40,135 nt of DNA from Mycobacterium sp. UM_CSW (lineage in GTDB: Bacteria > Actinomycetota > Actinomycetes > Mycobacteriales > Mycobacteriaceae), in contig NZ_AUWQ01000006.1 in NCBI RefSeq assembly GCF_000455205.1, positions 1-40,135 of the forward strand, in the 5' to 3' direction. The notes under the pieces were generated by a model, which ran no database searches, was not told the origin of the DNA, and saw nothing but the letters and a program-made list of their open reading frames with translations. The translations under genes were made by a program, and so were the position numbers. Positions 27,127-28,605 of the stretch are shown here, piece after piece (within the stretch, counting starts at the first letter, position 1; each line of letters begins with the position of its first letter).

Positions 27127-28605
27127 ATGTCCTATCTGGTGGCGGCCCCGGAGTTTCTCGCGTCGGCGGCAACGGATCTGTCCAACATCGGTTCGGCCCT
27201 CACCGCCGCCAACGCGACGGCCGCTGCCCCCACTAGCGGGGTGCTGGCAGCGGCCGAGGATGAGGTGTCGGCGGCCATAGCGGCGCTGTTCTCCGCCCAC
27301 GGCCAGGGCTTTCAGACAGTGAGCGCCCAGGCGGCGGCGTTCCACGCCCAGTTCGCGCAGGCCCTGAACGGGTCCGGGATCACCTACGCCATGGCCGAGG
27401 CGACGAATGCCGCGCCGTTGCAGGCGCTGCAGCAAGGCCTGGTGGCTGCCGCCCCAACCTTCGACCTGGGTCTGGGTAACCGGGGCACCAACAATGTGGG
27501 CAACGGAAACACCGGCAACTCCAACCTCGGCACCGGGAACACCGGCGACAGGAACATCGGCGGCGGGAACGGCAACGCTCTGCACCCCAGCGTTGGCAAC
27601 GTCGGCAGCGGAAACACCGGCAACCTCAACTTCGGCAGCGGCAACACCGGCAGCCTCAACGTCGGCTTCGGGAACACCAACTCCGACTTCACAACGCCAC
27701 CGGGTAGCCCGTTGAGCAACATAGGGTTTGGGAACACCGGCAACGCCAACTGGGGAATCGGAAACAACGGCAACTCCAACGTCGGCGCCGGGAACAACGG
27801 CTTCGGCAACACGGGCGCCGGCAACACTGGCAACGCCAACATCGGCCTCGGGCTCACCGGCGACAACGAGATCGGCGTGGGCGATACCTACTACAACTAC
27901 GTGACCGGCCAGTTCCACCTCGGCGGGCTGAACTCGGGCAGCGGCAACATCGGCATCGGGAACTCCGGTACCGGCAATATTGGTTTCTTCAACTCCGGTA
28001 ACGGCAACATCGGCATCCTCAACGCCGCCGTCAATGTGCCGGGCGCCCATGGCAACTTCGGCATCGGGAACTCTGGCGTGGGGAACGTCGGGTTTGGGAA
28101 CTCGGGCACGGCCAACTTCGGATTCGCCAACTCGGGAGCGCTGAACACCGGGTTCTTCAACTCAGGTCAGTTGGACACCGGCTTCGGTAACGCGGGCGGC
28201 ACCCTGGACACGGGCGGCAACACGGGTTTCTGGAACTCGGGCACCACGAACACCGGATGGGGGAATTCGGGCAACGTCAACACGGGCATCTGGAATTCGG
28301 GCAACGTCAACACCGGCCTCGGGCTGACCGGTGACAGCGGCCAGACCACATCGGGCTTCGGCAACACCGGCTTCGACGTTTCGGGCTTTGGCAACACGGC
28401 TAGTGGCGGCACCACAGCCGACGGCTTCATGTCGGGATTTGGAAACAGGGCCTACGGCAGCACCGTGAATGCCTTCGTCTCGGGCTTCTTCAACGCCGGC
28501 GTCCCGAGCGCCCTGAACCCGGGCATATCCGGTCAGGTGTCGGGCCTGTTGAACACCGGCAATCTAATCGCGGGCTTCTTTGGCCTGAGCAACTTCTTCA
28601 AGTAG
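27127..28605 (+). CDS. PE-domain protein with MPTR-type pentapeptide repeats
   Basis: A protein of 492 residues. Residues 1-95 are a clear PE domain (MSYLVAAPEFLASAATDLS..., P8-E9, and the T7SS signal YAMAE at 87-91). From about residue 115 to 480 the protein is built of NxGxGN / NTGNxNxG pentapeptide repeats, the MPTR pattern normally attached to PPE domains; these fold as a right-handed beta-helix. There is no PGRS (GGAGGX) sequence. The ATG at 27127 follows CAGGAGC. It should be exported through an ESX system. The hybrid architecture is the odd feature, since PE normally pairs with PGRS. Confidence 0.92.
   Translation: MSYLVAAPEFLASAATDLSNIGSALTAANATAAAPTSGVLAAAEDEVSAAIAALFSAHGQGFQTVSAQAAAFHAQFAQALNGSGITYAMAEATNAAPLQALQQGLVAAAPTFDLGLGNRGTNNVGNGNTGNSNLGTGNTGDRNIGGGNGNALHPSVGNVGSGNTGNLNFGSGNTGSLNVGFGNTNSDFTTPPGSPLSNIGFGNTGNANWGIGNNGNSNVGAGNNGFGNTGAGNTGNANIGLGLTGDNEIGVGDTYYNYVTGQFHLGGLNSGSGNIGIGNSGTGNIGFFNSGNGNIGILNAAVNVPGAHGNFGIGNSGVGNVGFGNSGTANFGFANSGALNTGFFNSGQLDTGFGNAGGTLDTGGNTGFWNSGTTNTGWGNSGNVNTGIWNSGNVNTGLGLTGDSGQTTSGFGNTGFDVSGFGNTASGGTTADGFMSGFGNRAYGSTVNAFVSGFFNAGVPSALNPGISGQVSGLLNTGNLIAGFFGLSNFFK

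What the first reader, a model, noticed from the sequence alone, without database searches (positions are those of the whole stretch)
27127..28605. PE domain fused to MPTR repeats
The first 95 residues are a textbook PE domain with a YxxxE secretion signal, but the rest is NxGxGN pentapeptide repeat, the MPTR module normally carried by PPE proteins. PE proteins usually carry PGRS repeats or nothing. A swap would put a PPE-type beta-helix on a PE carrier and could change partner choice for ESX export.
Basis: partly seen in the sequence, partly recalled or inferred. Interest (0 to 1): 0.75.

Follow-up and report, generated by a model that had tools for sequence, protein, structure and literature searches.

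The report
PE head on an MPTR tail
A mycobacterial gene joins the export head of one secreted protein family (PE) to the repeat tail usually assigned to the sister family (PPE), and the same unusual pairing turns up in other mycobacteria without having been named in the papers searched.

Summary
The 492-aa gene at 27127-28605 has a PE domain (113 bits) with YxxxE, then about 380 residues of MPTR repeat (127 bits), no PPE domain, no PGRS. The tail is of PPE-MPTR origin: it shares interruptions and C-terminus with PPE-MPTR proteins, and DNA similarity passes from PE/PE_PGRS genes to PPE-MPTR genes between residues about 103 and 110. Two related assemblies carry the gene in matching surroundings, under purifying selection. 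It is not unique: at least 31 long PE-MPTR proteins in 22 of 396 Mycobacterium genomes; 41 in 27 with shorter variants. Their tails do not form one clade apart from PPE-MPTR tails, and one relative preserves a joint, a PE linker fused to the last residues of a PPE domain. In the window's genome and one other, a PE-MPTR gene is followed within about 10 bases by a PPE gene, in the complete case a PPE-MPTR. No searched paper describes this class. Most likely mechanism (inferred): ESX-5 export of an MPTR solenoid on the PE arm of a PE/PPE pair, so that a PPE partner, not the MPTR protein itself, contacts EspG5.

The parts
27127..28605 (+). PE-MPTR gene, 492 aa plus stop
   Evidence: orthologues in Mycobacterium sp. 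E796 (96% aa) and sp. Marseille-P9652 (79% aa)
27115..27119 (+). AGGAG, likely ribosome binding site 7 nt before the ATG
   Evidence: sequence printed; read by eye
27136..27408 (+). PE domain (export head)
   Evidence: PF00934; nearest solved relative by sequence PE8 (5xfs), E 1.1e-15
27385..27399 (+). YxxxE (Y87 to E91), ESX secretion motif at the end of the head
   Evidence: a Y...[DE] motif is present in 37 of 37 PE-MPTR heads compared
27433..27456 (+). joint region, residues about 103-110: 23 of 25 DNA matches to own PE and PE_PGRS loci end at residues 76-106 (the other two are PE-MPTR genes); 7 of 7 matches to own MPTR loci begin at residue 110 or later
27454..28602 (+). MPTR tail (N-x-G-x-G pentapeptide repeat) with non-repeat C-terminus
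27886..27927 (+). interruption TYYNYVTGQFHLGG, shared in position, with a few changed residues, with PPE-MPTR proteins; marks the tail's origin
23020..25781 (+). context: two overlapping PPE-SVP genes, 1.3 kb upstream beyond a ubiE-type gene on the other strand; not shown to be partners

Best explanation
SHOWN: the gene is a chimera of a PE head, most like those of PE_PGRS genes and PE8, and a PPE-MPTR tail; it is kept in three related genomes and belongs to a recurrent class (PE-MPTR). [quoted passage not shown] INFERRED: the protein is an ESX-5 substrate. Its PE head pairs with the PPE domain of a separate protein; EspG5 binds the PPE tip of that partner; YxxxE is the export signal; the MPTR tail passes out and folds as a surface solenoid, possibly after the head is clipped by a PecA-type protease as for PE_PGRS proteins. 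The consequence of the swap is that the MPTR tail travels on the PE arm, without an EspG5-binding PPE domain of its own. In one lineage the partner is probably the PPE protein encoded directly downstream (a PPE-MPTR in the complete case), which would give a pair with two MPTR tails; for the window's gene the partner is unknown.
For: Domains. Tail homology to own PPE-MPTRs over linker, interruptions and C-terminus: 50% identity to L066 and 48% to L052 (no low-complexity filter, so its E-values of 3e-152 and 3e-153 are inflated, and the alignments run into the heads); mosaic at DNA level. Orthologues in E796 and Marseille-P9652 in matching surroundings; dN/dS 0.085 and 0.224. Class. One clade of 30 PE-MPTR tails against 26 PPE-MPTR tails rejected, AU p 2.9e-48. 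Joint preserved in L161: identity to a PPE-MPTR gene is 5, 2 and 5 of 15 in the three bins before position 736 and 11-14 of 15 in the seven after it. Three of 37 keep GRPLI, found in 26 of 32 PE_PGRS compared. PE-MPTR followed directly by PPE: L140, L142. Own genome: two EspG genes found, nearest to EspG5 and EspG3. Head nearest to PE8, solved with PPE15 and EspG5. From papers, passages only: EspG5 binds the PPE tip (PMC5311947); PecA removes PE heads (PMC6819658).
Against: No secretion, binding or expression data. The head tree does not reject one PE-MPTR clade (AU p 0.073), so one head lineage with later tail exchange fits as well as several head swaps. Tail alignments are of repeats, so branches are less safe than their support suggests. 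In L161 the two bins further upstream of the joint also match by 8 and 10 of 15. Only 1 of 37 linkers keeps a PPE remnant. For 33 of 37 PE-MPTR genes the scan found no PE or PPE start within 900 nt downstream (it missed the PPE beside L144 seen, and for L149 and L153 the contig ends after 69 and 0 nt). dN/dS of the C119/E796 pair is higher, 0.283. Partner of the window's gene unknown.
Confidence: 0.7

Rival explanations
1. [quoted passage not shown]
For: Fusions of neighbouring pe/pe_pgrs and ppe genes within M. tuberculosis are reported (PMC10591178, passages); patchy distribution, found in 27 of 396 genomes.
Against: Purifying selection on head and tail (dN/dS 0.085 vs E796, 0.224 vs P9652; 0.097 for the C113/G285 pair, 0.283 for the C119/E796 pair); orthologous groups kept across genomes, e.g. 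six genomes in one group.
Confidence: 0.2
2. The tail is not from PPE-MPTR but a PGRS array that drifted into an N-rich pentapeptide by convergence.
For: PGRS and MPTR are both glycine-rich, and PE_PGRS heads are among the nearest heads.
Against: Interruptions, linker and C-terminal segment shared with PPE-MPTR; no intermediates seen: in the 56 non-MPTR PE proteins GN.G..N.G occurs 0 or 1 times; preserved joint in L161.
Confidence: 0.03
3. Assembly artefact joining a pe and a ppe-mptr gene.
For: Draft assembly of 186 contigs; such repeats are hard to assemble.
Against: Same architecture and surroundings in the separate assemblies of E796 and Marseille-P9652; the 22 genomes with long PE-MPTRs include the single-contig G006. 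For the single case L161 (G325) an artefact is not excluded.
Confidence: 0.02

Closest known systems
PPE-MPTR subfamily (PMC7028111, passages)
   Same: MPTR tail with its interruptions and C-terminus
   Different: PE head in place of the PPE head, hence no PPE tip for EspG5
PE_PGRS subfamily (PE sublineage V, PMC7028111, passages)
   Same: PE head with YxxxE and an NA-x-PLQ linker; three relatives keep GRPLI
   Different: MPTR repeat instead of GGxGG repeat; GRPLI absent in the window's protein
LipY, a PE protein in M. tuberculosis and a PPE protein in M. marinum (PMC7028111, passage)
   Same: one C-terminal module carried by a PE head in one species and a PPE head in another; the NCBIfam LipY model matches only the head of P0001, 106 bits against a cut-off of 450
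   Different: the module is a lipase; here it is a repeat tail and the exchange recurs
PE-PPE domain shared by some PE and PPE-MPTR proteins (PMC1660551, passage)
   Same: precedent for modules shared across the two families
   Different: a hydrolase-type domain; PF08237 was not among the families found in the ten proteins scanned

Membership tests
PE family (PF00934) | PE domain over the curated cut-off at the N-terminus | tested here: met
   113.3 bits vs 22, residues 4-94
PE family (PF00934) | PE motif near residue 8 and YxxxD/E at the end of the head | tested here: met
   P8-E9 and Y87-E91
PE family (PF00934) | helical hairpin like solved PE proteins | tested here: inconclusive
PE_PGRS | GGxGG repeat tail | tested here: not met
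   0 GGxGG
PE_PGRS | GRPLI motif after the head (recalled as typical; frequency measured here) | tested here: not met
   absent in P0001; 26 of 32 PGRS compared have it
PPE-MPTR | PPE domain | tested here: not met
   no PF00823 match at E 0.1, while both PPE-SVP neighbours score over 210 bits in the same call
PPE-MPTR | MPTR repeats varying round NxGxGNxG | tested here: met
   17 N.G.GN.G and 20 GN.G..N.G; Pentapeptide_2 127 bits
ESX-5 substrates | export lost without ESX-5 or EspG5 | not testable with these tools
   only the presence of an EspG5-like gene in the genome is shown
Pentapeptide solenoid | solenoid with a strand every five residues | tested here: inconclusive

The most novel reading that the evidence does not exclude
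PE-MPTR is a real, unnamed subfamily of ESX-5 substrates whose MPTR tail rides on the PE arm, and in one lineage (C113 of this genome, and G285) PE-MPTR and PPE-MPTR are exported as one pair with two MPTR tails. MPTR and PGRS tails would then be interchangeable cargo, and what the PPE38-dependent route recognises would be the tail, not the head.
Probability: 0.35. Interest if true: 0.75.

Novelty: new variant of a known kind. Interest (0 to 1): 0.58.

Why it matters
The subgroup schemes in the review passages seen (PMC7028111; PMC1660551) tie MPTR to PPE and PGRS to PE. A PE-MPTR class breaks that tie. The first review leaves open whether the PPE38-dependent step sees the repeat tails or the sublineage heads; proteins with a PE_PGRS-like head and an MPTR tail, and genes for PE-MPTR and PPE-MPTR side by side, are natural material for that question and for finding the PPE partners of orphan genes.

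Full report
Observation. The gene at 27127-28605 (+) encodes 492 aa. Pfam gives PE at residues 4-94 (113.3 bits) and Pentapeptide_2 in 8 stretches (127 bits), and no PPE. YxxxE is Y87-E91. In the tail GN.G..N.G occurs 20 times against a shuffle mean of 0.26, with spacing peaks at 5, 10 and 15; there is no GGxGG. The NCBIfam LipY model matches the head only, far below its cut-off.

Where the parts come from. The window's genome (6.39 Mb, 186 contigs) holds 98 PE matches and, by my grouping of the rows, 12 MPTR frames: 3 with a PE head (C6, this gene; C119; C113), 8 with a PPE head (one cut at a contig edge, C146) and 1 whose head is cut off by a contig start (C81). Against own PPE-MPTRs the protein aligns over linker, repeats, interruptions and C-terminus, 50% to L066 and 48% to L052 (unfiltered, so E-values are inflated). 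Two interruptions are shared in place with PPE-MPTRs: GGGNGNALHPSVGN here reads GGGNGTAGHPSSGN in M. szulgai L033 and GGGNGFAGVPANGN in L066; TYYNYVTGQFHLGGLNSG reads AYYNSATGQFTFAGLNSG in L033 and TYFNTATNQFSFGGLNSG in L066. At DNA level, of 29 other own PE loci given, 25 matched at E 1e-15; 23 of these matches end at residues 76-106, and the two that go further are the other PE-MPTR genes (L012, L013). Of seven own MPTR loci given (six PPE-MPTR and the headless C81 stretch) seven matched, starting at residue 110 or later. So the joint lies at about residues 103-110.

Not an artefact. Mycobacterium sp. E796 (96% aa) and sp. Marseille-P9652 (79%) carry the gene. E796 matches the window over most of 22.8-33.7 kb. 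In P9652 window 27.0-29.1 kb is preceded directly by the equivalent of 20.0-21.2 kb and followed by that of 30.7-34.0 kb, so the window's 21.2-27.0 kb (with the PPE-SVP pair and ubiE) and 29.1-30.7 kb have no counterpart there at that sensitivity. dN/dS is 0.085 against E796 (head 0.151, tail 0.072) and 0.224 against P9652; for two other PE-MPTR pairs it is 0.097 (C113/G285) and 0.283 (C119/E796).

A recurrent class. A profile of nine PE-MPTR N-termini was run over 396 Mycobacterium genomes, with 8 candidates scored in each. I fetched 40 stretches, which hold 36 PE-MPTR frames; with the window's own, 37. Of these, 31 have at least 12 GN.G..N.G motifs and come from 22 genomes; six are shorter variants. 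A further 60 low-scoring stretches gave 4 more short PE-MPTRs, 47 PGRS and 9 others. Together 41 proteins in 27 of 396 genomes, a lower bound. Pfam scans of nine of the 41 gave both PE and Pentapeptide_2 over their cut-offs: P0001 and eight relatives; the other 32 rest on motif counts and on a PE profile built from the window's genome.

How it arose. Head tree (86 heads, 91 columns): PE-MPTR heads fall in several small supported groups among PGRS heads, 12 changes of label, but starred branches force only 1 and one clade is not rejected (AU p 0.073). Tail tree (57 tails): 7 changes, at least 5 forced by starred branches; one clade of 30 PE-MPTR tails against 26 PPE-MPTR tails rejected, p 2.9e-48. 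These are alignments of repeats, which calls for caution. Several head swaps, or one head lineage with repeated tail exchange, fit alike. The clearest joint is L161 (G325): a PE_PGRS-like linker runs straight into the last residues of a PPE domain (QDVSAMVGY...SAAAAQLTP). Ungapped identity to the PPE-MPTR gene of L032 is 5, 2 and 5 of 15 in the three bins before position 736 and 11-14 of 15 in the seven after it; two bins further upstream show 8 and 10 of 15. Three of 37 PE-MPTRs keep GRPLI, against 26 of 32 PGRS; 1 of 37 keeps a PPE remnant.

Partners. In L142 (G285) PE-MPTR, PPE-MPTR and PPE-SVP follow each other on one strand, the PPE start about 10 nt after the PE-MPTR stop. In the window's genome C113 has the orthologous PE-MPTR and a PPE start at the contig end, and C81 begins with an MPTR tail followed by a PPE; that they are one locus is not shown. 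The tail of the L142 PPE-MPTR groups with those two PE-MPTR tails (support 96). The downstream scan found a PE or PPE start in 4 of 37 loci: L137 (a second PE-MPTR), L140, L142 and L161 (a remnant); it missed a PPE frame about 200 nt downstream of L144. The window's gene has no such neighbour within 900 nt.

Mechanism. Two EspG genes were found in the draft genome, L173 nearest to EspG5 and L172 nearest to EspG3. Among solved proteins the head is nearest by sequence to PE8 (E 1.1e-15), solved with PPE15 and EspG5. EspG5 binds the PPE tip (PMC5311947, passages), and PecA removes PE heads of PE_PGRS proteins (PMC6819658, passages). I infer ESX-5 export as the PE half of a PE/PPE pair, with the tail displayed as a solenoid. 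Structure: helices 2-42 and 46-108 at low confidence, then three-residue strands every five residues, block pLDDT over 85 for 121-180 and 201-250; a separate tail model is similar. No solved fold matches convincingly; one viral protein named Pentapeptide matches the tail model at E 6.5e-4.

Literature. Seven searches of the open library found no paper that describes PE-headed MPTR proteins. 'PE-MPTR' or 'PE_MPTR' occurs in PMC8284050, PMC7312605 and PMC11361433 (passages only); the first two seem slips for PPE-MPTR; for M. spongiae (PMC11361433) a true use cannot be excluded, and no supplement was read. Passages of PMC7028111, PMC1660551, PMC11395111, PMC11939664, PMC10591178 and PMC12209268 name no such class. 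Most subscription papers are not held.

Verdict. A real gene of a class that has no name in what I could search; the exchange of modules is well supported, its effect on export is untested.

Noticed in passing
L142:75-4587 (G285); L140:1-1880 and L171:3-2310 (window's genome, C113 and C81): PE-MPTR, PPE-MPTR and PPE-SVP genes in a row on one strand, a candidate PE/PPE pair with two MPTR tails.
   Followed up: partly
L161:2450-2569 (G325): A PPE start of about 40 codons ending in a stop lies about 390 nt downstream of the PE-MPTR gene that preserves a PE/PPE joint, apparently a remnant.
   Followed up: partly
window 21170-27030 and 29123-30718: These stretches, the first with the PPE-SVP pair and a ubiE-type gene, have no counterpart around the gene in Marseille-P9652: gained here or lost there.
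   Followed up: partly
window's genome (L172, L173): Only two EspG genes were found, nearest to EspG3 and EspG5; none nearest to EspG1 in this draft.
   Followed up: partly
L157, L163, L166, L190, L199, L228: A shorter PE-headed variant with repeats of the kind GYGNVGxGN..NFGI.NVSPNF in several genomes.
   Followed up: no
antisense frames over PE genes, e.g. L140:3-1913 (+), L170:64-1602 (+): Frames antisense to PE domains score with the PE profile (20-47 bits); they look like mirror frames, not genes, and were left out.
   Followed up: no
window 21562-22926 (-) and 30717-32042 (-): AMP-binding and P450 ORFs match their Pfam models only over part of their length.
   Followed up: no
control genomes: The PE family rings over its cut-off in the E. 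coli control, which I cannot explain; Pentapeptide_2 rings in Methanosarcina acetivorans.
   Followed up: no
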